Assembly: GCF_041821025.1 (NCBI RefSeq) | Contig: NZ_JBGUAY010000001.1 | Coordinates: 1-64,000, forward strand | DNA length: 64,000 nucleotides | DNA from: Egicoccus sp. AB-alg6-2 | GTDB lineage: Bacteria; Actinomycetota; Nitriliruptoria; Nitriliruptorales; Nitriliruptoraceae | Direction: 5' to 3' | Shown: positions 8,410 through 44,871 of the stretch, piece by piece | How the letters are laid out: every line of letters begins with the position of its first letter | Numbering within the stretch: the first letter of the stretch is position 1 | Notes under the pieces: model-generated | The model's input: the letters and a program-made list of their open reading frames with translations, nothing else | What the model was told of the DNA's origin: nothing | Database searches by the model: none | Translations under genes and position numbers: made by a program

Positions 8410-9597
8410 ATGCAGGCCCGGACCAGCGGTACCGACCTCGTCGATGCGCTCATCGACGGGGTCCACATCGGGGACAACCTCGTCCTGCAGGGCGACGACG
8501 CGGCACCGCTCGACCTGCTCGTCGAGCGGTTCGTCGCGGCCACGCGGGGCCGGGTGCCGCTCGTGCTCGTCAACGTGTCGCGACCCTGGCAGGGGCCTGT
8601 CCCGCCGGACACCCGTGTCCTCGACTGGTCCGCGGTCGGCAGCGATTCGCCCCCGACGCTGGACGACGCGCTGCCTCCCGGCGCCGACTTCGGCGCCGCC
8701 ATGGCGATGCTGGAGGCGGCGGACGACCGCGTCGGCGAGGGGGCCGCGTTCGTCATCGACGACCTCGACGGCGTGCAGCGGACCTGGGGGCCGGGCGCGG
8801 CGCTGGAGTTGTTTCTCTCCACCTGCCCACGGCTGTACCGACGCCGCAGCCTCGCCGTGTGGCCGCTGCACACCGGCGCGCACCGCCCCGCGTTCCTGCG
8901 GCGGCTGACCGAGATCACCCAGGTGGTCGTCGACTTCACCACCGACGCCGAGTCGAGCCTCGTCACCGTGCGCAAGGCCGACGGACGCGGGGAGCAGGTC
9001 GTCGGGCGGCGCGTGCGGGCCGTCGTCGTCGACGGCGACCTCGCGGCCGTGGACAGCCCCCGCAACACCGGCGAGCTGCTCGGCACCGTCATCCGCGACC
9101 AGCGTCTGGCCCGCGGGCTGTCGCAGGCCGAGGTGGCGCGTCGGGTCGGGATCACCCCGTCGGCGCTGTCCCAGGTCGAGCGCGGCGTACGCGGGCCGGG
9201 CGGGGACACCCTGGTGCGCCTCTGGGAGGTGCTCGGGGTGCCGTTCGGGCCCGGCGAGCGGCCGGAAGCCGGCTATCGCATCGCCCGTCGCAGCGGGCGC
9301 GACCGGACACGGCTGCAGGACGGACTCACCGGCGAGTGTCTCCTCGACGACCCCGTGGCCGGCGAGGTGTGGGCGCTGGACCTCGCCGGTGGCGCGTCCG
9401 GGTCGCACGGCCCGTTCGCGGTCAAGCGACCCGAATCGGTCCTCGTGCTGCGTGGCGTGGTCGACCTGCAACTCGACGGGCGGACCGAGACCCTCCACGA
9501 GGGCGACGCGCTGGTGGCGGAGACCGCCAGTGTCCGGGGCTGGAGCAATCCCGGCGCGGAGACCGCGCGCCTGCTCTGGAGCATCCATCGCCCCTAG
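8410..9597 (+). CDS. Regulator with degenerate KaiC-like ATPase domain, HTH (XRE) and cupin
   Basis: This 395-aa protein has three parts. Residues 1-215 resemble a KaiC/GvpD RecA fold: it starts SGTDLVDALIDGVHIGDNLV, has a Walker-B-like AAFVIDDLDG and a terminal VTVRKADGR strand, but Walker A is replaced by LQGDDAAPLD, so ATP binding is probably lost. Residues about 222-280 are an XRE helix-turn-helix (LSQAEVARRVGITPSALSQVERG). Residues about 310-395 are a cupin. I favour ATG 8410 (GAGGCGAGGC upstream) because a TAGCAT -10 at 8368 would place transcription start after the GTG at 8377. It probably controls the flanking genes that carry the TGAAGC palindrome; the ligand is unknown. Confidence 0.8.
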   Translation: MQARTSGTDLVDALIDGVHIGDNLVLQGDDAAPLDLLVERFVAATRGRVPLVLVNVSRPWQGPVPPDTRVLDWSAVGSDSPPTLDDALPPGADFGAAMAMLEAADDRVGEGAAFVIDDLDGVQRTWGPGAALELFLSTCPRLYRRRSLAVWPLHTGAHRPAFLRRLTEITQVVVDFTTDAESSLVTVRKADGRGEQVVGRRVRAVVVDGDLAAVDSPRNTGELLGTVIRDQRLARGLSQAEVARRVGITPSALSQVERGVRGPGGDTLVRLWEVLGVPFGPGERPEAGYRIARRSGRDRTRLQDGLTGECLLDDPVAGEVWALDLAGGASGSHGPFAVKRPESVLVLRGVVDLQLDGRTETLHEGDALVAETASVRGWSNPGAETARLLWSIHRP

Positions 9598-9621
9598 CGC
9601 GTTCACGTTGCGGCAGTACCA

Positions 9622-9636
9622 TGAAGCACTGCTTCA
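9622..9636. promoter_or_regulatory. Candidate operator TGAAGCACTGCTTCA upstream of the GreA-domain gene
   Basis: This is a perfect palindrome of two 7-bp arms around one base. It matches the site at 6958-6972 and lies about 50 nt before the GreA-domain start, next to a possible TACCAT -10 box. Confidence 0.5.
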
Positions 9637-9683
9637 CGACGCCCACCCGCGGCGCGTTCCCGAGAGATCCGTGGAGGTGCGGC

Positions 9684-10145
9684 ATGGCCGCCGACGTCCC
9701 CGCCAAACTGCCGCTCGTCCTCACCGCCGAGGGCCGGGCCTGGCTCCAGGCGCGCATGGACCGGCTCGCCGCACGCCTCGAGAGCCTGGAGCGTGAGCTC
9801 GCCCGCGGCCGCACCGACGACCTCATCGCCGAGCAGCGCACGCTGCGCGACCAGGCCGACGAGTTGTCCCGCACGCTGCGCGACGCGGTCGCGCCGGGCG
9901 ACGTCGTCGACGACCCCACCATCGTCGAACTCGGCGACGAGGTCGAGGTGGCGTTCGACGACGGCTCGCGGGAGGCGTTCCTCGTGGTCCACCCGCTGGA
10001 AGCGGCCCTGGACGACCACCGCACCTCCGCGGAGGCACCGCTGGCGCAGGCCGTGCTCGGACGTCGACCCGGTGACGTCGTGACCGTCAGCGCGCCAGCC
10101 GGCGCGTACCGTTGCACGATCGTCCGTCGCGACCGGATCGGCTGA
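9684..10145 (+). CDS. GreA/GreB C-terminal-domain protein
   Basis: This 153-aa protein has an N-terminal helical hairpin rich in Arg/Leu/Glu (about 15-75) and a C-terminal FKBP-like GreA domain (VELGDEVEVAF ... LGRRPGDVVTV). The layout is that of a transcript-cleavage or RNA-polymerase secondary-channel factor. The acidic tip that GreA uses for cleavage is not clearly present, so it may be a Gre-like regulator rather than a true GreA. ATG 9684 follows GGAGG. It has its own palindromic operator-like site. Confidence 0.78.
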   Translation: MAADVPAKLPLVLTAEGRAWLQARMDRLAARLESLERELARGRTDDLIAEQRTLRDQADELSRTLRDAVAPGDVVDDPTIVELGDEVEVAFDDGSREAFLVVHPLEAALDDHRTSAEAPLAQAVLGRRPGDVVTVSAPAGAYRCTIVRRDRIG

Positions 10146-10149
10146 CGTC

Positions 10150-10584
10150 TTGTACCTCCAGGCGGGCGAGGAGGCGGCCGACCGCCTCGCGCGTGCCGCC
10201 GCCCTGGCCGGCGTCCCCGCCGCGATCGTCACCGATCCCGACGTCGAGACGAGCCAACTCGAGGGCATCGAGGTGGTCGTGGTGCCGCTGCCCGCCGATA
10301 CGTCACTGGAGGCCGGGATCGGCCTGATCCGGCGACTCGGCCGCACCCGCCCCGGCCTGCGTGTCGTCGCCGTCGGTGACACCGACAGCAACGCGTTCTC
10401 GTTGGCGTTCGACGCCGGTGCCGATGCCTGGGTCGACCACCGGGCCGAACCCGCCACGATCGCGACGGCCATGACGGGGTGGCCGGGCGCAACCGACACC
10501 GACCGTCGCGGTGCACGGCGGCGCCCGGCCCGGCGTTGGCGTCGCCGGGATCAGCGTTCGCCGGAGGCGCGCCGCTTGTTGTAG
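10150..10584 (+). CDS. Hypothetical protein with a receiver-like (CheY-fold) domain
   Basis: A 144-aa frame starts at TTG 10150, 4 nt after the GreA-domain stop, without a good ribosome site. Residues 1-110 look like a receiver fold: alternating strands (VAAIVTDPDV, IEVVVVPLPAD, LRVVAVGD) and helices with a terminal DAGADAWVDHRAEPATIATAM, as in response regulators. The phosphoacceptor Asp is not in its usual place, so it may be a pseudo-receiver. The last 30 residues are Arg-rich and overlap the convergent permease gene by 34 nt, so the true end or the gene itself is uncertain. Confidence 0.45.
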   Translation: MYLQAGEEAADRLARAAALAGVPAAIVTDPDVETSQLEGIEVVVVPLPADTSLEAGIGLIRRLGRTRPGLRVVAVGDTDSNAFSLAFDAGADAWVDHRAEPATIATAMTGWPGATDTDRRGARRRPARRWRRRDQRSPEARRLL

Positions 10585-27568: not shown

Positions 27569-30169
27569 GTGGTGACGCCGATCACGGCGAGAAGCACGCA
27601 CGAGCTGTTGGAGCGCGAGGCGCCGCTTCGTGCGCTGGATGCTGCGCTCGAGGAGGCACGGCGTGGGCGGGGCTCGCTGGTACTGATCAGCGGTGAACCG
27701 GGTATCGGGAAGTCGGCGCTGCTCTCGCATTTCGCGCGCGAGCGCGACCGCTCGGCTCGGGTGTTGGTCGGCCTCTGTGACGACCTGGCCATCCCGCGCC
27801 CGCTGGGTCCGTTCCGCGACCTCGCGGACGCGCTCTCGCCGGATCTCGCCGAAACCCTCGGTGGAGGGAGCATCCCCGGTGAGTTCGCCACGCGGCTGCT
27901 TCGCGAGCTCCGTGCCGGGCCGACGCCGACGGTCCTGGCCCTCGAGGACGTCCACTGGGCGGATCAGGCCACGGTCGATGCGCTCACCGTCGTCGCCAGG
28001 CGCCTGCGGGAGCTACCGGTGCTGCTGGTCCTCACGCTCCGGCCGGGCGAACTGGAGCCGGACGACCCGCTGCGCCCGGCCATCGACGCCATGCAGCGCA
28101 CGACCACGTTCCACGTCGAGCTCGCGCCGCTTTCGCGTGCCGCCGTCGAACAGCTCGCCGGGGACGACACCGAGCGGATCTACGAGTTGACCCGTGGCAA
28201 TCCCTTCTTCGTGATGGAACTGCTGGCGCACGGCACGGAACCACCGCCGCCGTCACTTGCCAACGCGGTGCTTGGCCGGGTGGCTCGTCTGGACGCCCCG
28301 GCCCGCGCCCTGCTGGAGCTGATCTCGGTGGTGCCTGGACGCGTGCCCATCCGCCTGCTCGATCTCGCCGAACCCGAGTGGGTCGCCGCCGCCGCGCCGG
28401 CCGAGCGACGCCGCCTGCTGACGAGCGATGCGGAGTACGTGCGGTTCCGACATGAACTCACCCGGGCGGCGATCCGCTCCAGCCTTCCGTACGGCCGCCG
28501 TCGCCTCCTGCACCGGCGCATCCTCGATGCCCTGCTGCAGGTCGACGCCGATCCGGCGGAGGTCGTGCACCACGCGGAGGGCGCGGGCGACACGGAGGTG
28601 GTCGCGGGGCACGCGCTGCTCGCCGCCCGTCACGCGGCCGCGACCGGGGCGAACCGCGAGGCGTTCGCGCACTACCAGCGGACGGCGGATCTCGCCGTCG
28701 AACGACGATCGGCAGTGGAGCAGGCGGCGCTGTTCGAGGAGCTCGCGCACAGCGCCTGGCTGACCGGCCACCTCGACGAGGCGATCGCAGCCGTGTCGCG
28801 CGCCATCGATCTGGCGGAGCAGCTCGGGGACACGGCGGCGCACGGTCGTTGCTCGAGCTTCCGTGCCCATCTCCACTGGTTCGGGGGCGACGGTCAGGCG
28901 GCGTGGCGCGATGCGTGTGCGGGGGTGCGGAGCCTCGAGGCGTCGGGGGCACCCCTCGAGCTCGCCCGCGCGTACGCCCAGTCGGCTGAACTGAGCATGC
29001 TCGCCAGCCGCGCCGACGAAGCGCTGCGTTGGGGGCAGCGGGCGATGCAGCTCGCCGGATCGGATCCGGAGATCCGGGCCCGTGCCATTGGCGCGATCGG
29101 CGGCGCGCAGCTGCAGCTCGACATCGACAACGTCGATCCCGTGCTGGAGGGCCTGGAGGTCGCCTGCCGAGCGCGTCTCCATGAGCAGGCGGTCTTCTCG
29201 CTCGTCGCGCTGGCGTACATCAACCTGCTGTGGGTGAAGCCGGATCTGGCGCGGACACACGCCGAGCAGAGCAGCGCGTACGCCAGAGAGCACGAGTTGG
29301 ACGGCATGGCGACCTTCGTCGACGGGTTGCTGTCCTGGCTCGACCTGCGTGCCGGTCGTTCCGGGCGGGCGCTGAGCCGCCTACCGACCGACGACATCCG
29401 CACGGTCTCGCCAGGAACCATCGCCGAACAGCAAGCCAGGATGGTGCGCACCGAGTTCGCCGTGCGCCGTGGCGAGGGCGACATCGACGAGTGGCTCCGT
29501 CGCGTCGCCGTCGCGGCAGACCGAACGGGCAAGTTGAGCCGGATCGGACCGGTGCTCGAGTTGCAGATCGAACGGGCGCTGACGTGCGACGCGCCGCTTC
29601 CCATCGAGCGGTTCGCTGAGGTGGCCGACATCGTCGGGAGCCAGGCACTCGCGGCGGGCTGTGGCGCTGGCAGGATCGCTGGCTGGGCGTCCGTGTGCGG
29701 GATATCGACGCTGTTCTCGGGCAAGGCCCCGGCACCGCACGCGGCGATGATCGCCGGTGACTGGCAGGGCGCGGCGGATGCATTCGGGGCGGTGGGGTGG
29801 CACCACGACCGCGCCCTGATGCTGTCGTTGCTCGACACCGCGGAAGCTTTGACCGAAGCCCTGGCCATCGCACGCTCGCTCGATGCCGTCCCGCTGGAAG
29901 AGCGGGTCTGTCGCCGTCTGCACGAGGTCGGCTTGCCCGTTCCCCGCGGCCCGCTCGCGGCCACGCAGGCCAACCCCGCGCAGCTGACCGGACGACAGCT
30001 CGAGGTGCTGCGTGAGGTACGGCGCGGACACGGCAACGCGCGGATCGCGGAACTGCTGCACATCTCGCCCCGAACCGTCGAGCATCACGTGGCGGGAATC
30101 TTCACCAAGCTCGGCGTGTCGTCGCGCGCGGAGGCCGTCGCGCGTTGCGCCGACCTCGGCATCACCTAG
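27569..30169 (+). CDS. Large LuxR-family ATPase regulator (LAL/MalT-like)
   Basis: This 866-aa regulator has an N-terminal AAA/NACHT-like ATPase (Walker A GEPGIGKSA at 42-50, Walker B VLALEDVHWAD near 115), a long helical TPR-like middle and a C-terminal LuxR HTH (LTGRQLEVLREVRRGHG, ISPRTVEHHVAGIFTKLGV). These proteins are ligand-triggered activators. Tandem GTG codons lie at 27569 and 27572; the first is used here. It may control the OsmC/methyltransferase pair downstream, but nothing in the sequence proves that. Confidence 0.88.
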   Translation: MVTPITARSTHELLEREAPLRALDAALEEARRGRGSLVLISGEPGIGKSALLSHFARERDRSARVLVGLCDDLAIPRPLGPFRDLADALSPDLAETLGGGSIPGEFATRLLRELRAGPTPTVLALEDVHWADQATVDALTVVARRLRELPVLLVLTLRPGELEPDDPLRPAIDAMQRTTTFHVELAPLSRAAVEQLAGDDTERIYELTRGNPFFVMELLAHGTEPPPPSLANAVLGRVARLDAPARALLELISVVPGRVPIRLLDLAEPEWVAAAAPAERRRLLTSDAEYVRFRHELTRAAIRSSLPYGRRRLLHRRILDALLQVDADPAEVVHHAEGAGDTEVVAGHALLAARHAAATGANREAFAHYQRTADLAVERRSAVEQAALFEELAHSAWLTGHLDEAIAAVSRAIDLAEQLGDTAAHGRCSSFRAHLHWFGGDGQAAWRDACAGVRSLEASGAPLELARAYAQSAELSMLASRADEALRWGQRAMQLAGSDPEIRARAIGAIGGAQLQLDIDNVDPVLEGLEVACRARLHEQAVFSLVALAYINLLWVKPDLARTHAEQSSAYAREHELDGMATFVDGLLSWLDLRAGRSGRALSRLPTDDIRTVSPGTIAEQQARMVRTEFAVRRGEGDIDEWLRRVAVAADRTGKLSRIGPVLELQIERALTCDAPLPIERFAEVADIVGSQALAAGCGAGRIAGWASVCGISTLFSGKAPAPHAAMIAGDWQGAADAFGAVGWHHDRALMLSLLDTAEALTEALAIARSLDAVPLEERVCRRLHEVGLPVPRGPLAATQANPAQLTGRQLEVLREVRRGHGNARIAELLHISPRTVEHHVAGIFTKLGVSSRAEAVARCADLGIT

Positions 30170-34703: not shown

Positions 34704-35637
34704 CGTCGCCACGTTGAGCGCGAACGGAGCGGGCAACGCGGAGCTCCGCAAGCACCTGGTGTCGCTCGGAGCGAACGTCACGGTGCTGACGGGCCTGCTG
34801 GTGTACTTCGGGTGGAAGCGGGCGGAGACCCAGTCGCGCGTCCTCGGCGTGGACGTGAGCATCTTCGGGATGTCGACGGTCGACTACGTGCTCCGCAGCG
34901 TCGACGCGCTGTTCGTGCCGATCGGGGTCGGCGCCTTCGCCGGGCTCGGTTGGATCTGGATCGACGGACGGATCCGCCACCGGCTCGCGGTCGATGCCGC
35001 GTGGCCGGCCCTGCGGCGCACCACCAGGGTCCTCGCCCTCGCCTGGCTGCTGCTGCCCGTGACGGTGTACGGCCTGGGTCGGCTGTGGCCACGTTTCGGG
35101 CTGTTCGGCTTTCCGCTCAGCTTCGGGGGCGGCGTTCTCCTGTCCGCCTACGCGATCGACCTGCGCGCGTCGCTCGCGGACGTGCCCCATCGCGTCGAGC
35201 GCTCGACCGGCCAGAGCGAGCTTGCGAAGACGCTCGTCGGCATCATCGTCGTGCTGAGCCTGTTCTGGGCGGTCACCAACTATGCCACCTTCCGCGGCGT
35301 CCGCCTCGCCGTGGAGTTGATGGAGGGCGTCGACGAGCTGCCGAGCGTGGTCGTCTACAGCCCGGCGCGCCTCGCCATCGACGCCCCCGGCGTCAGCGAG
35401 CAACGGGTCGCACCGGAGGACGGGGACGCCGAGATTGCGGCGCCCGACACCGACGGTGATGCCCCCACGCAACCGGCGCCCGCGGGCCTGTACCGCTACG
35501 ACGGCCTGCGACTGCTCGACCGGATCGGCGAGCGCGTGTTCCTGCTCTCGGACGGCTTCGAGCGCCGCCACGGCGTCGTCGTCGCGCTGCCCGACGACGG
35601 CAGCGTCCGGTTCGAGTTCGTGCGCGATCGACGCTGA
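34693..35637 (+). CDS. Membrane protein of unknown function coupled to the lipoprotein
   Basis: This 314-aa protein has an N-terminal helix (VSLGANVTVLTGLLVYFGW), a cluster of helices around 70-145 and a further helix near 180-200, then a likely extracytoplasmic C-terminal domain (about 210-314) ending in a beta-rich YDGLRLLDRIGERVFLLSDGFERR segment. ATG 34693 overlaps the preceding gene by 11 nt. I cannot name the family. The pair has no recognisable neighbours in its own pathway. Confidence 0.72.
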   Translation: MHRDVATLSANGAGNAELRKHLVSLGANVTVLTGLLVYFGWKRAETQSRVLGVDVSIFGMSTVDYVLRSVDALFVPIGVGAFAGLGWIWIDGRIRHRLAVDAAWPALRRTTRVLALAWLLLPVTVYGLGRLWPRFGLFGFPLSFGGGVLLSAYAIDLRASLADVPHRVERSTGQSELAKTLVGIIVVLSLFWAVTNYATFRGVRLAVELMEGVDELPSVVVYSPARLAIDAPGVSEQRVAPEDGDAEIAAPDTDGDAPTQPAPAGLYRYDGLRLLDRIGERVFLLSDGFERRHGVVVALPDDGSVRFEFVRDRR

Positions 35638-35660: not shown

Positions 35661-37184
35661 TCAGCCGCTCGCGCTCCGGCGGTAGACGTCCCACAGCCCA
35701 CCCAGGGCGACCCTGCCGAAGGCGCTGACTGCCGCCCCCCGATCCTGGAGCCCATGGCAGCCGGTCGGCTCGACCGACGTCACCAGCTGCCGCGCCTGGC
35801 GTGCGCCCATGCGGAGCTCGCCGTCACCGACCACGGGCCCACGACCGTCGTCACCCTCGGTCAGCTGCAGTCGCAAGGTCCCGAGATCCTCCCACAGGTC
35901 GAAGCCACGGTCGTCGCGCAGGAGCTTCACGCCGCGGACGTGCAGCGGTCGTCGGTCGAGCCGCACGACCGCCTCGTACATCAGCTCGCGTCCCGTGCCT
36001 CCATCGCGAGGCAGCCGCACCGAGAAGGTGCCGGCGTCGAGGTAGCGGGGTCGCCCGAGCGCCGGATGGTCGAGGCGACCGACGAGCTGGACCGGCTGAC
36101 CCGGATCCGCGGCGAAACCGGCGATGTCGCGAATCTCCACGGTCAGGTCGAGCGTCGCGTCGCCTCGCTCGGCTGCCTGATCGCCAAGGTCGAGCGCGAG
36201 GGATCCCTGCATGCGTTCACGGAAGCGCACGCCGACCGGTGGGTCCTGCATGGCGGTCGCGCGTTCGTCGAGCGCGACCCCGGCCGGTGTCGACGACGCG
36301 AGGTAGTTGCGCGCGTCCCGGTAGCCCATCGCCACCAGCGTTCCGGCGTCGATGCGGCCGAGGTAGAAGTCGGGATCGAGCGGCAGGGGGAACGCCGGCT
36401 TGACGACGTGCAGCCTGATGGGCCGTGTGCTGCCGTGCACGGGCTCGCCCGCGAGCCGGCGGTCGTTGATCTCGCGGATCTGTTCGAGCTCGGCGAACAG
36501 CGCCCCGTTGGCGCTCATCTCGATCATGTGGACGTACTGCTCCAGTGGCCCTTCGCCGTACCTCGGGGTGTTGCCGATGCACCACAGCAGCCACAGTTCG
36601 TCGGCCCCGCGCCGGACCGCTTCGAGCAGGTTCGCGTCCTTGACCCACACCGCGTCCGTCCACAGCGATCCGTGCGCCTCCACCGGCGGCATGAACAGCG
36701 GGAGCGAGATGCCGGCAACGAGCAGGTCCTGATCGACACGATCATGGGGGATCGCCGCGCAGGTCTTCGTGGTGAAGTTGCAGACGTTGAAGGTGCCCTC
36801 GAGCTCCGTGCAGGCGTTGATGCGGGCGACATCGATGCCCAGGTCAGGGAGGACGTGGTCGACGATGCCGTCGGCGTCGCCCATGGCCAGCAGGTTGGTC
36901 GGGCCGCCGAGATAGTCGGCCAGGGGCATCATGGAGACGAAGCGGCACACGTCGAGCCGCTCCCAACGCGCACACAGCTCCGCGGGGCTGACCCCGGACA
37001 GCAGTGCGCCGAGCGTCAGAATGCCGCCGGAGGTCCCGTCCCCGTGGGCGAAACGCAGACCGGCTTCGTCGAGCGCGAGCACGACGCCCGCCTGCCAGGC
37101 GACCCGCATGCCGCCGCCGGCCAGGATCAGCGCACGCCGTTGGCTCGTGTCGGTCCCAGACGTTGCGCCCGTGTCGTCCGCCAT
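35661..37184 (-). CDS. Patatin-like phospholipase with extra C-terminal domain
   Basis: This 507-aa protein has a patatin domain from about 16 to 330: oxyanion loop LAGGGMRVAWQAG, nucleophile Ser52 in GTSGG, and the dyad Asp183 in VKDANLLEA (the usual DGG or DGA is DAN). About residue 350 onward is a separate domain whose end (GFDLWEDLGTLRLQL ... AVSAFGRVALGGLWDVYRRS) matches the C-terminus of the GMC oxidoreductase encoded at the other end of the operon. ATG 37184 follows AGGAGG inside the preceding gene. The likely reaction is acyl-ester hydrolysis of a lipid. Confidence 0.88.
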   Translation of the reverse strand: MADDTGATSGTDTSQRRALILAGGGMRVAWQAGVVLALDEAGLRFAHGDGTSGGILTLGALLSGVSPAELCARWERLDVCRFVSMMPLADYLGGPTNLLAMGDADGIVDHVLPDLGIDVARINACTELEGTFNVCNFTTKTCAAIPHDRVDQDLLVAGISLPLFMPPVEAHGSLWTDAVWVKDANLLEAVRRGADELWLLWCIGNTPRYGEGPLEQYVHMIEMSANGALFAELEQIREINDRRLAGEPVHGSTRPIRLHVVKPAFPLPLDPDFYLGRIDAGTLVAMGYRDARNYLASSTPAGVALDERATAMQDPPVGVRFRERMQGSLALDLGDQAAERGDATLDLTVEIRDIAGFAADPGQPVQLVGRLDHPALGRPRYLDAGTFSVRLPRDGGTGRELMYEAVVRLDRRPLHVRGVKLLRDDRGFDLWEDLGTLRLQLTEGDDGRGPVVGDGELRMGARQARQLVTSVEPTGCHGLQDRGAAVSAFGRVALGGLWDVYRRSASG

Positions 37185-37618
37185 CGTCCGTCCTCCTGTC
37201 GCGCCATACGGGTGGTCACCGCGATCACGCACACCCCGACCAGCTCCCAGCCGAGGAACAGCAGCATCAGGATGCTCGGCCGCCCGTCCGCGGCGAGGCT
37301 CCACAACCGCGCCACCACGCCGGCGCCCATACCGAACAGGAACAGCCCGTTGTGCACGCCGGCGGTGAAGATCTCGCGGCGGAAACGCAGGGCGAACAGG
37401 CCGAACGCGAGTTCCATCGCCCGAAGGAAGCGGTACTGGCTCAGCAGGTCGGCCCGAGCCCGGTCGGGCAACGCTTCGAGGTGGACGCCGAGGAGCCACG
37501 GCAGGTCGACCCGGGCACCGACGATGCCCCATGCCCCGGCGGCGATCAGCAGCAGGACGTAGCCGTAGAACAGCACCAGGGCCAGCGACCTCAGTGGCGG
37601 GTTCGGCGCCAGTGCCAT
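37127..37618 (-). CDS. Small four-helix membrane protein (operon gene 7)
   Basis: This 163-aa protein has helices near 12-32, 65-80, 85-110 and 115-135 and a charged tail. The segment YRFLRAMELAFGLFALRF followed by FTAGVHNGLFLFGMGAG is reminiscent of DUF4345-like proteins, without certainty. It overlaps the previous gene by 28 nt and the patatin gene by 58 nt, so the order is tightly conserved. Role unknown; perhaps a lipid-handling or scaffold subunit. Confidence 0.72.
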   Translation of the reverse strand: MALAPNPPLRSLALVLFYGYVLLLIAAGAWGIVGARVDLPWLLGVHLEALPDRARADLLSQYRFLRAMELAFGLFALRFRREIFTAGVHNGLFLFGMGAGVVARLWSLAADGRPSILMLLFLGWELVGVCVIAVTTRMARQEDGRWRTTRAQRLGPTRANGVR

Positions 37619-37989
37619 GTCATCAGTCCTCCCGAGACGAGGTCGAAGCCGGCGACCAGCAGTGCGAGCGCCCCGAACAGGCCCCTCCCCACGCCGAGGG
37701 CGACCGCGATCGCGGCCCCGTACTTCTGCAGCGCACCCCAGAGCAACGCGACCTCGCGGGAGTCGCTGGCCAGTTCGGCGTGCAGGACCAGTCCGCCGAC
37801 GATGGCCATGAACATGCCGATGATGGCGAAGAAGTGCTCGGTCGTCGGCGTCGTCGAACCGCCGACCAACGTGAGCACGAAGGCGGGGGCGAGCAGTTGC
37901 AACAGTCCCGAGACCACGGTGATGGCCGCGATCGTCAGGACGGCGCTGCGGAGCAGGTCCTGGCGGACGCGGACGGCGAGCGTGCTCAT
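37591..37989 (-). CDS. Small four-helix membrane protein (operon gene 6)
   Basis: This 132-aa protein shows four helices (ILTIAAITVVSG-like start, FFAIIGMFMAIVGGLVLHAEL, GAAIAVALGVGRGLFGALALLVAG and the C-terminus). The EHFFAIIGMFMAIVGGL segment carries an acidic-His pair in the membrane. Its ATG overlaps the previous stop (ATGA). It resembles its downstream neighbour in size and topology. Function not recognised. Confidence 0.72.
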   Translation of the reverse strand: MSTLAVRVRQDLLRSAVLTIAAITVVSGLLQLLAPAFVLTLVGGSTTPTTEHFFAIIGMFMAIVGGLVLHAELASDSREVALLWGALQKYGAAIAVALGVGRGLFGALALLVAGFDLVSGGLMTWHWRRTRH

Positions 37990-38453
37990 CGGACCGCGAA
38001 CCAGGTGAACCAGGCGGCCATCGCCACCCACTGCACGGTCCACAGCGCCACCCGCACGCGGTTGAGCCGCATCCACCGCGACAACGTGTGCCGCAGGCGT
38101 GCCTCGTCGGTGATACCGGCCTTCATCTCCCGGTTGAACGGCAGGATGTAGCGGGTGGTGAGCAGGGTCGCGGCGACCACACCGGCGAGCACCACGACCG
38201 GCACCCAGCGACGGGGGCTGTCCCATTCGGTGACCAGCAGCACGCCGCCCGCCACCAGCATCAACCCGGTCATGACGGTGAAGAACCGGGTCGCCGCCTC
38301 GACCTGCGGCACGAAGTGGGAGTAGTAGTTGTCGGTCCGCAGCGCGTCGGCGGTCGGGAACGAGAACAGCACCAGCGACCAGCCCGTGCCCAGGTACATC
38401 GACGTGCACAGCAGCAGGAACAGGGCGGCGCCGACCGTCAGCCCGTCGTTCAC
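37986..38453 (-). CDS. DUF1772-like four-helix membrane protein (operon gene 5)
   Basis: This 155-aa protein has four helices with a FVPQVEAATRFF loop and an ILPFNREMKAGI ... WMRLNRVRVAL loop, the pattern of DUF1772 (anthrone-oxygenase-like) proteins. GTG 38453 overlaps the previous stop (GTGA) with GGGAG directly before it. A cofactor-less oxygenase or a helper role is possible; I cannot decide. Confidence 0.7.
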   Translation of the reverse strand: MNDGLTVGAALFLLLCTSMYLGTGWSLVLFSFPTADALRTDNYYSHFVPQVEAATRFFTVMTGLMLVAGGVLLVTEWDSPRRWVPVVVLAGVVAATLLTTRYILPFNREMKAGITDEARLRHTLSRWMRLNRVRVALWTVQWVAMAAWFTWFAVR

Positions 38454-39316
38454 CTCCCGACCTTCGGCGGCTCCAGCCAGTCCTCGCTCCGACCCAGCTC
38501 GGCGACGGTCTCGAGCCCCTCGGGCACCTGAGTCACCGGCTCGGGGGACGTCAGGAACCACCCCTCGAAGTGGTCGTCGAGCACCCCGCTGGTCGTGGGC
38601 AGCCAGGCAGCGAACACGGGATCGCTGGCGATGTCGAGCTCCCGCAGCGGATCCATCCTGGGGTGGCTGCCGAGGTAGAGCCGGGCGCTCGCCCGCCGTC
38701 CGAGGGCGACGTGCATGCCACCCCTGAAGTAGATCGTGGACTTCATCAACAGGCCGCGGAACTGGCAGTAGTTGACCGCGCTGGCGCGAACCGGCAGCCG
38801 GACGCCCGCTGGCCGGTCCACCTCGATCCGCATCGCCAGCTGGCCGTCGAGGTCGTACTGGCTCGCGACCTCGTCTTCGGCGATCGTGAAGTCGAGGTTC
38901 GCCTGGTGCTTCGGCATGCCCCAGATCCCCTTGCCGCCCTTGACCGAGACCTCGGTGCTGACGGGCAGATCCACCACGTACTGCCCGGTTCCGAACGCGC
39001 GGCGAAACAGGCCCGGGAGCACCATCGGCGCCCGGCGGAGCCCGCGGGTGCAGGCGATCGCGATGCTGAACTCGATGTACGTGCCGATGTCGGTGACCCG
39101 GTAGTCGATGACCGTGATGAGCAGCAGGCCACGACCGCCGGGAAGGCGGAGCGGATGCAGCTCTTCTCCGGGCATCAGCGCACGGGCGCGGTCGGCGTCG
39201 ATGCTGAAGCCGGCCATCAGCACGGGCGAGTCACTGGAGTCGACGGGCAACAGGAAGGGGATGCCGTCCACGCGGGCGTGACGGCCGGCGAGGCGGCGCT
39301 GCCGTGCTGGGATCAT
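38450..39316 (-). CDS. Acetoacetate-decarboxylase-family protein (operon gene 4)
   Basis: This 288-aa protein has an ADC-like beta-barrel. The Schiff-base Lys motif is WGMPKHQA with Lys136; the Lys that follows it in acetoacetate decarboxylase is His137 here. YIEFSIAIACTRG and STEVSVKGGKGIWG also fit the family. Such divergent members act on larger beta-keto, aldol or unsaturated substrates rather than acetoacetate, so the true reaction is open. Coupled to its neighbours by ATGA and GTGA. Confidence 0.85.
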   Translation of the reverse strand: MIPARQRRLAGRHARVDGIPFLLPVDSSDSPVLMAGFSIDADRARALMPGEELHPLRLPGGRGLLLITVIDYRVTDIGTYIEFSIAIACTRGLRRAPMVLPGLFRRAFGTGQYVVDLPVSTEVSVKGGKGIWGMPKHQANLDFTIAEDEVASQYDLDGQLAMRIEVDRPAGVRLPVRASAVNYCQFRGLLMKSTIYFRGGMHVALGRRASARLYLGSHPRMDPLRELDIASDPVFAAWLPTTSGVLDDHFEGWFLTSPEPVTQVPEGLETVAELGRSEDWLEPPKVGR

Positions 39317-40356
39317 GCGACCAGCTCCTTGAGGATGAGGGGAAAGACGTCGCGGGCGGCATGCCGTCCGAGGAAGACGTCGAGGTGGCCGTAACCAGGC
39401 AGCACGTGCAGGGCGTGGCGGCCCGGCGCATGGGTGTCGAGGAACCGGTAGGTGCGACGCTGGCTCTCGGGGAGAAAGCAGAGGTTGTCGCCGCCGGCGA
39501 GCAACACGAATCGCGCCTCGGTACGGGGGGGTCCGGCCACCACGCTGACCGGCAGTGGGCCGCCGGTGTCACCGCTGACGAGGTGGCCGCGGACGACCGA
39601 CCGCACCATCTGCCGGAAGAACGACACCGGCACCTCGGCGAACTCGTGCGCGATCCAGTCATGGGTGGCGGCGTCGAGGTTGGCGTGCGACCACAGGCAG
39701 GGGAACCCCGTGCCGTAGGTGAAGCTGACCATGCGACAGACGATGTTGTCGCACTCGCGGTGGGTCAGCCGTACCAGCCCGACGATGGCACGGGCGGTCG
39801 CGTCGGGCGCCTCGAGACCCCAGGCGGGATTGAGATAGGGGGTGAGTCGTCCGATGACCGGTGTCGCCGCCCGGATCTTGACCTGCGAGACCTTCGGCAG
39901 GACCGGGTGCAACGACACGGCATTGCTCACGATGGTGGTGACCTCGGGCAACAACCCGGCCACGGCCGCCATCGCGAAACTCGTGGAGCCCTGGCAGTGC
40001 ACGATGGCTTTCAGCTCGGACGCGCCGGTGTGCGCGAGAACGGTTCTCACCGCCGAGGGGTGGTCATGGACCGCGGCGTCATCGAGCGTCCACTCGCACG
40101 GCTCCACGTCGATGCTCGCGCGCCAGTTCTCCAGCCACACGTCGTAGCCGTCGTCGACCAGGGCGTCGACCAGGGTCACGGGCACGGGCGGCTCGAAGAT
40201 GGCGCTGCGCACCCCGGCGCCGTGGACGAGCAGCACCGGGCCGCGCGTGGGCTCGCGCCCGCCTCGTACCCGCACCAGGTGCAGCGGCTTGCCGTCACCG
40301 GCGAGGAAGGGCACCGTCTCCCGACGTTGGCGTGTTCCGGTCGCGACGGCACTCAT
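39313..40356 (-). CDS. Alpha/beta hydrolase with Cys at the nucleophile elbow (operon gene 3)
   Basis: This 347-aa hydrolase has the oxyanion segment LLVHGAGVRS (42-51), a nucleophile elbow IVHCQGSTSF in which Cys121 takes the place of Ser, an acid in LAGGDNLCFLPESQ and a terminal His in LPGYGHLDVFLG. A Cys nucleophile is known from dienelactone hydrolases. The protein lacks a signal peptide. It overlaps both neighbours by ATGA. I infer a hydrolytic or lyase step on the oxidised product of the GMC enzyme. Confidence 0.85.
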   Translation of the reverse strand: MSAVATGTRQRRETVPFLAGDGKPLHLVRVRGGREPTRGPVLLVHGAGVRSAIFEPPVPVTLVDALVDDGYDVWLENWRASIDVEPCEWTLDDAAVHDHPSAVRTVLAHTGASELKAIVHCQGSTSFAMAAVAGLLPEVTTIVSNAVSLHPVLPKVSQVKIRAATPVIGRLTPYLNPAWGLEAPDATARAIVGLVRLTHRECDNIVCRMVSFTYGTGFPCLWSHANLDAATHDWIAHEFAEVPVSFFRQMVRSVVRGHLVSGDTGGPLPVSVVAGPPRTEARFVLLAGGDNLCFLPESQRRTYRFLDTHAPGRHALHVLPGYGHLDVFLGRHAARDVFPLILKELVA

Positions 40357-42095
40357 CCGACCACCCCCCGTTCGAGTCTGATCGGCGCCTCGATCAGCTG
40401 GGGCTCGAGCTCGTCACCGTCGGGTTCGAGCCAGGAGTCCTCGGGCGAGGCGCCCGCCCGGACGCGCCAACGGTGTGCGACCTTTGGGACGCCGATGGCG
40501 TACACCGTCAGCGCCTCCTCGGCGACGTGCAGCCGGACGAAGCACTTGTGGTCCTCGATGCGCGCCGCGGCGAAGAGCTCGTTGGTGTTGTGACCGGTCG
40601 TGTCCGCCAGGAGCAGGTAGCCGGCGAAGACGTAGCAACTGGCCAGACCGCCCACGATGCCGGAGGCGACCACGAACGCCGGCAGGTAGAGGGCGTCCGG
40701 GAGGCGCGAGAGCGCGTTCGCCGCCAGGGTGATGGTCCCGGCGGCGACGAGGACGTGGGCGATGCCGTGCGGCAGACCCAGGCCCAGCCGCCACCGCCAG
40801 CGGTGATCCTTGGTGAACAGCAGCATCCCGAACAGGATCAAGGCGGTCACGACGCTGGCCGCCGGTGTGGTCGCGATGCGAGCGACGGCCGCACCGAAGG
40901 TCAGGTCGCGAAGTTCGGCCGTCAGGCCCGCCCCCGTGCTCCGCGCCCACCACAACACCGCCAGAGAGAACCAGGCGTGCAGGGCGGTGACCAACCGCCA
41001 GAAGCCGCGGTTGTCGAACGGCAGGCCGCCGACCCGCCAACGCAGGCGCTGGGACGTTTCGCGGTCGGGGTAGGTGGCCGCCATCCGGTAGGCGGCCGAC
41101 GGCGTGGTCTTGCCCCGCGCCCGGGATGCGGCCGGTGGAAGTTCGAGGTTCGGGGGCAGGCGGTGCGTGGCCGACAGATAGGCGCCCCCGCCGCCGGCCG
41201 TGATCTTCTGCCGGTCCCCGTCGATCTCGGTGTAGCGGACGTAGTGGTGCGCGTCGCCGCTCAGCGCCACGCGGACGCGAGCTCCGACCGGTGTCAGGAC
41301 GTGGCGTTCGAAGAAGTCGAGGTGGGCGTAGCTCTCGGGCTCCTTGGTGTTGGCCCCGACCCAGGTCGGCTTGGCGGAGCAGAGCACGACCTCGTCGCCC
41401 GCCTGCATGCGTTCCTCGGCGATGCGGCGGAAGTAGTCCAGCTGCGGCGCGTCGATGTAGGTCTCGAACTGGATGTCGAGACCCCACAACCACCAGCGGT
41501 GCGGCAACTGCACCGCGAAGTAGCTGCGGCGCTGACGCGTCTGCCAACCGCCGATGAAGCGGCCCTGACCGAACACCCGCAGGAAGGCGGTCAGCCCGTC
41601 GTACCAGTCGTGGTTGCCCGGAATCGCGTACAGGGTCGGGTGATCGGTGACCGTGTAGGGCAGAGCGGCGCCGTACGGGCCGACCAGGCGCTGCTCGTAG
41701 AGCTCGACGCTGGCACTGGGATAGACCTGGTCACCTCCCATGACCAGCACGTCCCCCCGCGTGGTGGTGGTCGGCTGGCCGTCCACGCCCGCGACATCGA
41801 GCTTGCCGGCCGCGAGCAGCGACGCGACGCTGTAGGTGGCGTCGAAACCGTCGCCGAGGTCGGCGACGTAGTCGATCCACACCGCGGCGCGGTCGCTGAC
41901 GTCCTGGGGCGGATCGACGCCGAGTGCCCCGAGCAGTTCCCGCTTGTCGGCGTAGGCGCCGAACAGCCCCGACAGCACGGCACGCTGACCCGTGTCGATG
42001 AGCTCGCGGGGCGACAACCACTCGACCATCGACGCCATCTCGAACCCGAGGGCCTCGGGGTCGGTCGAGGTCGGCCTCGGGGGCGGCGGGGTCAT
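40353..42095 (-). CDS. Membrane-anchored metallophosphoesterase (operon gene 2)
   Basis: This 580-aa protein has a calcineurin-like domain (about 70-300) with LGDGFD (80-85), GGDQVYP (120-126), GNHDWYDG (160-167) and GDAHHY (280-285). Four or five helices follow at about 365-510, then a soluble tail of about 75 residues. The domain would sit on the cytoplasmic face if the first helix inserts outward; topology is not certain. ATG 42095 overlaps the GMC stop (ATGA). A lipid-phosphate or nucleotide-diphosphate substrate is plausible. Confidence 0.85.
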   Translation of the reverse strand: MTPPPPRPTSTDPEALGFEMASMVEWLSPRELIDTGQRAVLSGLFGAYADKRELLGALGVDPPQDVSDRAAVWIDYVADLGDGFDATYSVASLLAAGKLDVAGVDGQPTTTTRGDVLVMGGDQVYPSASVELYEQRLVGPYGAALPYTVTDHPTLYAIPGNHDWYDGLTAFLRVFGQGRFIGGWQTRQRRSYFAVQLPHRWWLWGLDIQFETYIDAPQLDYFRRIAEERMQAGDEVVLCSAKPTWVGANTKEPESYAHLDFFERHVLTPVGARVRVALSGDAHHYVRYTEIDGDRQKITAGGGGAYLSATHRLPPNLELPPAASRARGKTTPSAAYRMAATYPDRETSQRLRWRVGGLPFDNRGFWRLVTALHAWFSLAVLWWARSTGAGLTAELRDLTFGAAVARIATTPAASVVTALILFGMLLFTKDHRWRWRLGLGLPHGIAHVLVAAGTITLAANALSRLPDALYLPAFVVASGIVGGLASCYVFAGYLLLADTTGHNTNELFAAARIEDHKCFVRLHVAEEALTVYAIGVPKVAHRWRVRAGASPEDSWLEPDGDELEPQLIEAPIRLERGVVG

Positions 42096-44464
42096 CGTCG
42101 TGCCCCCGCCCCACCGAGCTTCGGGCCGTAGAGCCGCCACAGTTCACCGAGGAACAGGCGGCCGAAGTCGGACAGCGCCCGGGCCCGCGCCTGGGCCGTC
42201 GGACCTTCCGTCCGGAACGTGGTCATCTGACGGGCGAAGTCGCGCTTGAGGATGTGCAGCACCCCCGAGGCGAGGACGTCGGCGCCGTCCTCCTCGAGTG
42301 GGCCGACGTGGCCCCGCAGCAGCTGGGTGTAGAGGGTGGAGGTGTCGCGCCAGACGTCGAACCCGGGGTCGTCGTGGATGTCCTTGTAGCCGTTGAGGGT
42401 GAAGGCGTCGCCGTCCGGCCCGACGAGGAAGAGCCGGTAGAGCATGCGGCGCCGGGCCGGATCGTCCTCCTCGACGAACAGGTGGAAGATGCCCCGGACG
42501 ACCGGCAGTCGCCCTCCGAGCGGGCCGTACTCGACCCAGCCCTCGGCGATCGCCTCGTGGGTCGGATCCTGCAAGAACGCGTCCACGTCCGCGATGCGGA
42601 TCGTGAGATGGAACATGCACGCGTGGCCTTGCTGCCTGCCCTCGTCGAAGCCGACCGCGTGGTCGGTCGCTCCCGGGGCCGCGAAACCCTTCATGTCCTC
42701 GGTGAACTCGAGGCTGGTCGGCGTGGTCGCGGGCACGGGCATCTCCTGCGTGCGGTGGCGCGGCTCGAGCGAGGACGTGCCCGCGACCTCGGCCCGTTCG
42801 AGGATGCGTTCGGCCATCCGGTCGGCGAAGGCGGCGATGGTCAGGGCAGGGTTCGGACCCACCGGGCCGGGCATCGCGGCACCGTCGGCGACGAACAACC
42901 CCGGGTAGGCGAAGGACTCGCCGTAGCCGTCGACGACGCCCTCGCCCACGTGCCGACCCATCGGTGCCCCGCCGAGTGGATGGACCGTCACCACGCGCTT
43001 GAGCCGGTAGGTGGGGTTGTCACGCAGTTGCCCGCCGAGGACCCTGGCGATGTCCTGCATGCTGGAGCGCACCGCGTCGAAGTAGGACTGCGAGGTCGCC
43101 GTCGTCCACTCGATGTTCAGATAGTTCCTGCGCAGCCGCATGACGCCGTCGGGTACGTCGCGCCCCATCCCCAGCAACGGCATCGAACTCGACGACAGCG
43201 AGGCATCGCCCAGCAGGTCGCTCAGCGCGGCCCCGATGTCGCTGCGGGGGGTACGGCTGACGGTCGCCCACAGCCGGTGCAGGACGAACCGGGCGGCACG
43301 CCGCACGCTGCCCGGTGCCTGGGACGCCTCGAGCAGCCAGTTCACGAACTGGGGGTACCCGGCGTCCTGAAGGTAGTAGCCGCGCCCGCTGCCCCCGTCG
43401 ACCTCGTCGGGGACGCGAATGGTGCTGGTGATGACCGGACCCCGGCTGGCGTCGAGGTGACGCACCGCGCCATCGGGCGTCCGGGTGCCGATCATGAACC
43501 CGAGCAGGTCGCCGTTGCCGCAGAAGCGGGTGCCGAGGGCCGGGCCGAGCCCTGGGAACGAACGGCGGTTGCGCAGCAGCAGGTAGGGAGTTCCGAGGGC
43601 GCCGGCGGCGAGGACGAGACGGTCCGCGGTCAGCGTGCGCAAAGGCAGCTTGCCGGTGGCCTTGGGCTCGCCCTCGCGGGCCGGGTCGTGCTCGACGTAG
43701 TCGACGCGGAAGCCGCCCCCGGGGAGCGGGGCGAAGTGTCGGACCTCACATCCCGTGCGGACCTGCGCCCCGCGGGCCGCGGCGGCGGACAGGTAGGTGT
43801 GGTCGAGCGTGTTCTTGGCACCGACGTTGCAGCCGATGTCGCACTCGCCGACGAGTCGGCACGTACTGCGACGCCGGCCGTGGATGTTCGGATACGGGGC
43901 CTCCGGTAGCGGATCGCCCGGATGCGCGCCGGCACCGGCGAACGAGACCGCCAGCTTGGGGAGCTGCCAGCCGAGACCCAGCTGCCCGGCCGCTTCACGC
44001 AGTGCGCGGGTCTTGGGCGTGTCGGCGTAGGGCGGCCGGTCGAACGGATAGCGCTGGGCGTCGAGCATGGCCTCGACGCGGTCGTAGTGGGGATCGAGAT
44101 CGGCTCGGGAGATCGGCCAGTGCTCGTACCCGGTGCCGAGCGGCTGCTCGTGGACGAACCAGTGCTCGTCCTTGCGCAGGAGCACATTGGCATAGATCAG
44201 CGAACCGCCTCCCAGGCCGCTGCTCACCACCGCGTCGATCCCGCGGAAGGACCACACGTCGAACATGCCGTGCAGGCCCTTGCTGGGGTCCCAGAAGTTG
44301 GCGGCCATGTCGCGGGGCGAGCGGGGAAAGTCACCCGGTGCGTAGGCCTTGCCGCGCTCCAGGACGCAGACCGACAGCCCCGCGTCGGCGAACCGGAACG
44401 CGCTGGCGGAGCCGCCGAAGCCGGAGCCGACAACCGCCACCCCGAAGTGCTCCACGCCGACCAT
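42092..44464 (-). CDS. GMC oxidoreductase, cholesterol-oxidase-like, with extra C-terminal domain (operon gene 1)
   Basis: This 790-aa FAD enzyme starts with the Rossmann motif VVGSGFGGSASAFRFADAG and ends its catalytic part (about 545) with VHPLGGAPMGRHVGEG and FVADGAAMPGPVGPNPALTIAA, as in cholesterol oxidase-type GMC enzymes. No signal peptide is seen. Residues about 575-790 are an additional domain (LTIRIADVDAFLQDP ... GFDVWRDTSTLYTQL ... DFGRLFLGELWRLYG) that is also found on the patatin. It probably oxidises a hydroxyl on a hydrophobic substrate. It leads the operon. Confidence 0.9.
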   Translation of the reverse strand: MVGVEHFGVAVVGSGFGGSASAFRFADAGLSVCVLERGKAYAPGDFPRSPRDMAANFWDPSKGLHGMFDVWSFRGIDAVVSSGLGGGSLIYANVLLRKDEHWFVHEQPLGTGYEHWPISRADLDPHYDRVEAMLDAQRYPFDRPPYADTPKTRALREAAGQLGLGWQLPKLAVSFAGAGAHPGDPLPEAPYPNIHGRRRSTCRLVGECDIGCNVGAKNTLDHTYLSAAAARGAQVRTGCEVRHFAPLPGGGFRVDYVEHDPAREGEPKATGKLPLRTLTADRLVLAAGALGTPYLLLRNRRSFPGLGPALGTRFCGNGDLLGFMIGTRTPDGAVRHLDASRGPVITSTIRVPDEVDGGSGRGYYLQDAGYPQFVNWLLEASQAPGSVRRAARFVLHRLWATVSRTPRSDIGAALSDLLGDASLSSSSMPLLGMGRDVPDGVMRLRRNYLNIEWTTATSQSYFDAVRSSMQDIARVLGGQLRDNPTYRLKRVVTVHPLGGAPMGRHVGEGVVDGYGESFAYPGLFVADGAAMPGPVGPNPALTIAAFADRMAERILERAEVAGTSSLEPRHRTQEMPVPATTPTSLEFTEDMKGFAAPGATDHAVGFDEGRQQGHACMFHLTIRIADVDAFLQDPTHEAIAEGWVEYGPLGGRLPVVRGIFHLFVEEDDPARRRMLYRLFLVGPDGDAFTLNGYKDIHDDPGFDVWRDTSTLYTQLLRGHVGPLEEDGADVLASGVLHILKRDFARQMTTFRTEGPTAQARARALSDFGRLFLGELWRLYGPKLGGAGARR

Positions 44465-44580: not shown

Positions 44581-44871
44581 TCACGCCGCCTCGGCGGCCC
44601 GTGCTTCGATCTCCCACGGATGTCTGGCATAGGAGAACCCCGACCGAGCCCATGCCGCCAGGTAGCCGACGTAGTAGCCGACCACACCGCGCAGCCGGTA
44701 CTGCTCCCAGTGGGCGAGCTCGTGCCGGCGCAGCCGCTCGGAGTCGCGGGTCACCCGTACGAGGATGCCCACCGGCGGCAGACACATCGCCGCGATCCAC
44801 GGCAGCGGCAGCCACCGCACCATGCGGAACTGCGCAGGTCGGCTCGCGCGCGTCGCCTGGCCGGTTCGCAC
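44581..44871 (-). CDS. Small protein with HELAH motif
   Basis: This 96-aa protein has a hydrophobic segment (LPLPWIAAMCLPPVGILV) and a following RRHELAHWEQYRLRGVVGYYVGYLAAW, where HELAH could be a zinc-binding HExxH. A third ligand is not obvious. GTG 44871 has AGGGGG 6 nt upstream; an internal ATG (MVRWLPLPW) is an alternative. It lies upstream of the eight-gene operon on the same strand with a 116-nt gap. Function unknown. Confidence 0.6.
   Translation of the reverse strand: MRTGQATRASRPAQFRMVRWLPLPWIAAMCLPPVGILVRVTRDSERLRRHELAHWEQYRLRGVVGYYVGYLAAWARSGFSYARHPWEIEARAAEAA

What the first reader, a model, noticed from the sequence alone, without database searches (positions are those of the whole stretch)
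35661..44464. Eight-gene, end-overlapping operon of unknown pathway: GMC oxidoreductase, phosphoesterase, Cys-hydrolase, ADC-fold protein, three small membrane proteins, patatin
All eight genes are on one strand and joined by ATGA/GTGA or longer overlaps, so they must act together. The enzyme set (FAD alcohol oxidation, a beta-keto type decarboxylase fold, two hydrolases, a membrane phosphoesterase and three small four-helix membrane proteins) matches no pathway I know. A plausible reading is stepwise oxidation and cleavage of a membrane lipid or sterol-like molecule, or production of a modified lipid. This is the strongest candidate for an undescribed system in the window.
Basis: partly seen in the sequence, partly recalled or inferred. 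Interest (0 to 1): 0.75.

Follow-up and report, generated by a model that had tools for sequence, protein, structure and literature searches.

The report
Unstudied bacterial lipid-processing gene set
Eight overlapping genes form a real operon that recurs in distant actinobacteria; its core (an alcohol-oxidising flavoenzyme, an unnamed barrel-shaped domain and a lipase-like enzyme with an unusual cysteine active site) is also found in other phyla and in antibiotic-type gene clusters, and I found no description of it.

Summary
In detail: eight coding genes on the minus strand (44464-35661), overlapping by 4,4,4,4,4,28,58 bases. The set is not a one-off. The same order, sometimes lacking TM3 or with MPE moved, occurs in Solirubrobacterales, Arthrobacter, Paenarthrobacter and Cellulomonas. 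In 396 sampled Actinomycetota genomes the ADC subfamily occurs in five; four lie in intact clusters, one in a truncated remnant. A smaller core recurs more widely: (1) a carbonyl-forming redox enzyme, (2) a roughly 210-residue beta-barrel domain absent from Pfam, (3) an acid-lipase-like hydrolase with invariant Cys and Asn instead of Ser and Asp. The three are fused into one protein in Rhizobium, Azospirillum, Leptospira, Bernardetia and Variovorax. In Streptomyces-like genomes and Rhodococcus the barrel and hydrolase follow an ACP-thioester reductase in polyketide clusters. The GMC protein is not a cholesterol oxidase by NCBI's cut-off and carries three invariant cysteines with the spacing of the 3Fe-4S ligands of FAD glucose dehydrogenase. 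The host genome lacks hopanoid/sterol cyclase, KstD and PHA synthase, so endogenous sterol or PHA is unlikely. Best reading: a cytosolic, membrane-facing pathway that turns a lipophilic alcohol into an aldehyde or ketone and passes it, via the barrel, to a Cys-dependent acyl-handling enzyme. Substrate unknown.

The parts
42092..44464 (-). GMC flavoprotein, residues 1-565, with FAD motif, His495 and Asn538, and the Cys202-X5-Cys208-X3-Cys212 motif; C-terminal barrel domain from about residue 575
   Evidence: Pfam GMC_oxred_N/C over cut-off; invariant columns in 22 relatives
42095..42757 (-). unnamed beta-barrel domain of the GMC protein (8 strands plus C-terminal helix)
   Evidence: no Pfam match; AlphaFold2 mean pLDDT 94.6; no PDB match at E<=0.001; homologous domains in patatin, ABH and thioester-reductase fusions
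40353..42095 (-). MPE: metallophosphoesterase domain, hydrophobic (membrane) segments around residues 404-497, small C-terminal beta domain
   Evidence: Pfam Metallophos just under cut-off; Foldseek purple acid phosphatase E 4e-5; conserved GGD, GNHD, GDxHxY motifs
39313..40356 (-). ABH: alpha/beta hydrolase with Cys121 nucleophile, Asn291, His324
   Evidence: profile matches gastric and lysosomal acid lipase at E 3e-18 to 3e-14; Cys and Asn invariant in all 21 aligned relatives across phyla
38450..39316 (-). ADC-superfamily protein with invariant VSVKGGKGIWGMPKHQA-type motif (Lys136)
   Evidence: Pfam ADC 54.9 bits, cut-off 29.8; alignment of 11 relatives
37986..38453 (-). TM1: small membrane protein, Anthrone_oxy/DUF1772-like below cut-off
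   Evidence: 22.8 bits against 27.3; conserved in 7 loci
37591..37989 (-). TM2: small membrane protein of no named family
   Evidence: no Pfam match (longer ORF); conserved in 7 loci
37127..37618 (-). TM3: DUF4345 membrane protein, optional member of the set
   Evidence: Pfam 32.6 bits, cut-off 26.5; seen only in window, L066 and L144
35661..37184 (-). patatin-like hydrolase (GGG-R motif, GTSGG Ser, TDA Asp) with a C-terminal barrel domain at 35664-36263
   Evidence: Pfam Patatin 55.7 bits, cut-off 27.7; catalytic Ser52 and Asp177 of the aligned fragment invariant in 9 relatives; barrel domain aligned with the GMC one

Best explanation
The operon encodes a cytosolic, membrane-facing lipid-modification pathway built on a portable core: a redox enzyme that makes a lipophilic carbonyl, a beta-barrel domain that binds or hands over that product, and a lipase-fold enzyme with a nucleophilic cysteine. 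Proposed steps. (1) Patatin and/or the membrane phosphoesterase release a lipophilic alcohol from a membrane lipid (inferred). (2) The GMC flavoprotein oxidises it to an aldehyde or ketone, with electrons leaving through an Fe-S cluster to a membrane acceptor (motif shown, cluster and reaction inferred). (3) The barrel domain, fused to whichever partner enzyme, holds the product (fold predicted, role inferred). (4) The Cys-ABH binds the carbonyl or acyl group covalently on Cys121 and transfers or hydrolyses it (residues shown, reaction inferred). (5) The ADC-like protein, through its conserved lysine, acts on a keto intermediate by decarboxylation or aldol-type chemistry (inferred). In Streptomyces-like genomes and Rhodococcus the carbonyl maker is an ACP-thioester reductase instead of the GMC, which is why I think the shared intermediate is an aldehyde or acyl group rather than a sterol.
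For: Recurrence and order; all five ADC-subfamily loci found in 396 genomes hold the GMC; correlated distances. Fusions: GMC-barrel-ABH triple fusion in Rhizobium, Azospirillum, Leptospira, Bernardetia and Variovorax; barrel-ABH fusion in L127; patatin-barrel fusion in L126 and L183. ACP-thioester reductase-barrel followed by Cys-ABH in Rhodococcus and Streptomyces-like PKS clusters (hhalign E 3e-11). Barrel protein beside another Cys-rich GMC type. Cys/His/Asn conserved across all ABH contexts. CX5CX3C matches the 3Fe-4S ligands Cys212/218/222 of Burkholderia glucose dehydrogenase (PMC6719666). ABH profile matches acid lipases.
Against: No substrate or product is known. The aldehyde/acyl hand-over is drawn from shared partners, not from a reaction. 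The barrel's lipid binding is unproven: Foldseek found no significant relative. The gamma and cytochrome subunits of Fe-S GMC dehydrogenases are absent from the operon, so the electron acceptor is unknown. Ketone-forming sterol-like chemistry by the GMC cannot be excluded by sequence.
Confidence: 0.42

Rival explanations
1. Catabolism of long-chain alcohols or wax esters: ABH and patatin are ordinary esterases, and GMC is a fatty-alcohol oxidase that feeds fatty aldehyde to beta-oxidation.
For: Acid-lipase-like ABH, patatin, Cys-rich GMC motif that from memory resembles eukaryotic long-chain alcohol oxidases; a FAO-like Cys-rich GMC also pairs with the barrel in Streptomyces-like genomes.
Against: Gives no role to the ADC-like protein, MPE and small membrane proteins; no acyl-CoA ligase or aldehyde dehydrogenase in the set; the nucleophile and acid of ABH are invariantly changed to Cys and Asn; the same ABH sits in PKS biosynthetic clusters.
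Confidence: 0.2
2. Sterol or steroid ester catabolism: ABH/patatin cleave steryl esters, GMC oxidises the 3-hydroxyl.
For: The nearest solved GMC structures are cholesterol oxidases; the ABH profile matches lysosomal acid lipase/cholesteryl ester hydrolase.
Against: GMC scores 193 bits against an 850 cut-off; cholesterol oxidases lack the Cys motif; own genome has no KstD hit and no sterol/hopanoid cyclase; no hydrophobic N-terminal segments on the soluble enzymes.
Confidence: 0.1
3. 3-hydroxy acid route: GMC oxidises a 3-hydroxyacyl compound to a 3-keto acid, which the ADC-like protein decarboxylates to a methyl ketone.
For: ADC superfamily protein with a conserved Lys; ABH resembles PHA synthase in its Cys nucleophile; in Rhizobium the fusion gene lies near phaC/phaE and a CoA-transferase.
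Against: No PHA synthase in the own genome or in most full-set genomes; the core works without ADC in most loci; the second lysine of classical ADC is probably His here.
Confidence: 0.12
4. Chance adjacency of unrelated genes.
For: All single families are common in actinobacteria.
Against: Same order in at least three distant lineages, gene fusions in several arrangements, 5 of 5 ADC loci linked.
Confidence: 0.02

Closest known systems
Class I (GMC) cholesterol oxidase, Streptomyces/Brevibacterium type
   Same: GMC fold, FAD motif, active-site His and Asn
   Different: Scores 193 bits against the NCBIfam cut-off of 850; has invariant Cys202/208/212; carries a barrel domain; no hydrophobic leader
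Direct-electron-transfer FAD glucose/fructose dehydrogenase catalytic subunit (3Fe-4S GMC)
   Same: CX5CX3C cysteine spacing equal to Cys212/218/222 (PMC6719666); significant profile match, E 2e-26 to glucose dehydrogenase
   Different: No small gamma subunit or cytochrome subunit in the operon; extra barrel domain; other partner enzymes
Gastric lipase / lysosomal acid lipase family
   Same: Full-length profile match, E 3e-18; His of the triad conserved
   Different: Ser replaced by Cys, Asp replaced by Asn in all aligned relatives
PKS off-loading by ACP-thioester reductase in Rhodococcus and Streptomyces-like clusters
   Same: Same barrel domain and same Cys-ABH directly after it
   Different: The redox enzyme is a thioester reductase, not a GMC; no ADC, patatin or MPE seen there

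Membership tests
Cholesterol oxidase (GMC class I) | GMC fold with catalytic His and Asn | tested here: met
   VHPLGG and NPALTI align with the cholesterol oxidase motifs
Cholesterol oxidase (GMC class I) | score above the NCBIfam equivalog cut-off | tested here: not met
   192.9 bits against 850
Cholesterol oxidase (GMC class I) | isomerisation glutamate (Glu361 from memory) | tested here: inconclusive
   the HMM alignment skips that region
Fe-S GMC dehydrogenase (3Fe-4S) | three Cys ligands with CX5CX3C spacing | tested here: met
   invariant in the 22 aligned GMC domains; ligands in PMC6719666
Fe-S GMC dehydrogenase (3Fe-4S) | accompanying gamma and cytochrome subunits | tested here: not met
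   no such gene among the operon's Pfam matches
Fe-S GMC dehydrogenase (3Fe-4S) | bound Fe-S cluster | not testable with these tools
   needs spectroscopy
Acid lipase family | Ser-Asp-His triad | tested here: not met
   Cys121, Asn291, His324
PHA synthase (PhaC) | above family cut-off, Cys-Asp-His triad | tested here: not met
   21.6 bits against 622.65; Asn in place of Asp
Acetoacetate decarboxylase superfamily | Pfam PF06314 over cut-off | tested here: met
   54.9 bits against 29.8
Acetoacetate decarboxylase | catalytic Lys-Lys pair | tested here: inconclusive
   Lys136 invariant and followed by mostly His; its place against Lys115/116 (numbers from memory) rests on a weak model match
Patatin-like phospholipase | Pfam match, GXSXG Ser and Asp dyad | tested here: met
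   55.7 bits; invariant Ser and Asp
Metallophosphoesterase | calcineurin-like fold and metal-site motifs | tested here: met
   20.3 bits, just below 21.5; purple acid phosphatase fold E 4e-5; GGD, GNHD, GDxHxY conserved, first DxH changed to DLG
Anthrone oxygenase (TM1) | Pfam PF08592 over cut-off | tested here: not met
   22.8 bits against 27.3

The most novel reading that the evidence does not exclude
A previously undescribed, portable enzyme module: a carbonyl-forming redox enzyme (Fe-S GMC dehydrogenase or ACP-thioester reductase), a new beta-barrel lipid-carrier domain family, and a lipase-fold enzyme with a Cys-His-Asn site that captures the aldehyde or acyl group covalently. It is used both in stand-alone lipid operons of several phyla and to finish polyketide lipids, and the eight-gene operon is its most elaborate form.
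Probability: 0.35. Interest if true: 0.75.

Novelty: new variant of a known kind. Interest (0 to 1): 0.55.

Why it matters
It would name a domain family that Pfam lacks, link it to a set of lipid-handling enzymes in at least four phyla (including Leptospira and root-nodule bacteria), and predict a lipid product or pathway that can be tested by a single operon deletion. A lipase fold in which both nucleophile and acid are invariantly changed (Cys, Asn) points to a reaction other than plain ester hydrolysis.

Tried and rejected
Sterol and PHA readings were tested by looking for squalene/oxidosqualene cyclase, PHA synthase and KstD in full-set genomes: absent from the own genome and from most others. 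The upstream small HExxH-like gene (about 44584-44823) was tested as a ninth member: not conserved in other loci. Defence function: no PADLOC match. PDB profile searches with the ADC and barrel alignments gave nothing. A profile of the Cys motif alone found only insignificant ferredoxin-like motifs of Fe-only hydrogenase and a zinc finger (E 1.7-5). Foldseek with the barrel gave no match at E<=0.001. The pSOL1 record, wanted for a bona fide ADC sequence, is not held. Paper searches found no description of the set; only open-access papers were searched, so subscription literature could hold one.
Full report
Observation. Eight genes lie on the minus strand between 44464 and 35661. The junctions read ATGA, ATGA, ATGA, GTGA, ATGA, then overlaps of 28 and 58 bases. 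Codon-position G+C is that of coding DNA in all eight (GC3 0.88-0.96). The corrected starts are given in the parts list. Upstream there is a terminator-like hairpin at 44592-44573; downstream a convergent gene ends at 35637.

Families. GMC oxidoreductase, ADC superfamily, patatin and DUF4345 (TM3) pass Pfam cut-offs; Abhydrolase_1 passes for the ABH. Metallophos and Anthrone_oxy (TM1) fall just short, and TM2 has no family. The MPE model folds like a purple acid phosphatase (E 4e-5), although the model is only of medium confidence (mean pLDDT 70.8). The GMC C-terminus (from about residue 575) and the patatin C-terminus are homologous to each other and match no Pfam family; a stand-alone copy from Pseudonocardia also matches none. 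AlphaFold2 gives a confident eight-stranded barrel with a C-terminal helix (pLDDT 94.6) that has no significant PDB match.

Recurrence. A scan of 84,980 species genomes gave 80 actinobacterial loci. The same set in the same order occurs in Candidatus Siliceabacter (Solirubrobacterales; MPE apart), Arthrobacter, Paenarthrobacter and two Cellulomonas species, on an Arthrobacter plasmid (L138), and in G352 with MPE upstream. TM3 is optional. In a sample of 396 Actinomycetota genomes the ADC subfamily occurs in five. In four it lies in an intact GMC-barrel-ABH-ADC neighbourhood; in the fifth (G238) GMC and ADC fragments abut, as if the middle were deleted or misassembled. Distances of GMC, barrel, ABH, ADC and patatin correlate at 0.81-0.95. 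On the GMC tree the full set needs at least three changes. It is patchy: three other members of the genus lack it.

Core and fusions. Most loci hold only ABH plus GMC-barrel. In Rhizobium, Azospirillum, Leptospira, Bernardetia and Variovorax, GMC, barrel and ABH are one protein of about 1100 or more residues. The barrel is fused to ABH in L127 and to patatin in the window, L126 and L183, and stands alone in Pseudonocardia and Trebonia. MPE lies next to the triple fusion in Azospirillum and next to a GMC in Cupriavidus. A search of 72,556 plasmids with ABH found 15 records: ten also carry the GMC hit, and five are Rhodococcus plasmids.

The Rhodococcus lead. In the two Rhodococcus plasmids I opened, ABH follows an ACP-thioester reductase and precedes a crotonyl-CoA carboxylase/reductase; the one whose upstream gene I scanned has a PKS there. 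The reductase ends in the barrel domain. Profile comparison of these barrels with the GMC barrels gives E 3e-11 over 174 columns. A further barrel protein lies beside another Cys-rich GMC type in the same kind of genome (E 1.6e-10). So the barrel and usually the Cys-ABH accompany enzymes whose expected products are aldehydes or ketones.

Active sites. ABH: Cys121 and Asn291 are invariant in all 21 aligned relatives, and the triad His is kept, including the PKS-linked ones, while the profile is closest to Ser-Asp-His acid lipases. GMC: Cys202, Cys208 and Cys212 are invariant in 22 diverse members, and the fourth Cys of a ferredoxin-like pattern varies (Val in the window). The CX5CX3C spacing equals that of the 3Fe-4S ligands Cys212, Cys218 and Cys222 in Burkholderia glucose dehydrogenase (PMC6719666). 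I could not superpose the two. Cholesterol oxidases have no Cys at these places. Patatin keeps its Ser and Asp. The ADC-like protein keeps Lys136.

Substrate. The own genome has no squalene/oxidosqualene cyclase, PHA synthase or KstD hit, and most full-set genomes also lack them. With no hydrophobic leader on the soluble enzymes, an endogenous, non-sterol, lipophilic alcohol is the most economical substrate class. This is inference.

Conclusion. The operon is real, conserved and not described in the open-access papers I could search. Its logic (carbonyl maker, barrel, Cys enzyme, with lipid-releasing and keto-acid-type helpers) is supported by fusions and shared partners; its chemistry is not shown.

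Noticed in passing
window 44584-44823, minus strand: Small gene upstream of the operon with an HELAHWEQYR (HExxH) motif, separated from the GMC gene by a terminator-like hairpin; not found in related loci.
   Followed up: partly
window 27569-30166, plus strand: AAA/LuxR-type (LAL) regulator; a similar-looking AAA/LuxR regulator also lies just upstream of the ABH-GMC pair in Spirillospora (L049).
   Followed up: no
L045, L053, L126, L134, L183: FAD_binding_4 (VAO-type) oxidases recur beside the GMC-barrel loci; a VAO-family long-chain alcohol oxidase is known (PMC9299179).
   Followed up: partly
L045:12355-14847: MMPL-like large transporter directly after the GMC-barrel gene in Blastococcus, suggesting lipid export; identified by reading only.
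   Followed up: no
L178, L179, L181, L145: PKS with condensation domain, ACP-thioester reductase-barrel and Cys-ABH cluster in Streptomyces-like genomes and Rhodococcus plasmids, product unknown to me.
   Followed up: partly
L130/L142 (G238:C37): GMC N-terminal part abuts an ADC C-terminal part, as if the middle of the cluster were deleted or misassembled.
   Followed up: no
L043: Leptospira borgpetersenii plasmid carries the triple fusion followed by further GMC fragments (9027-10517) and, farther on, an annotated sphingomyelin phosphodiesterase.
   Followed up: no
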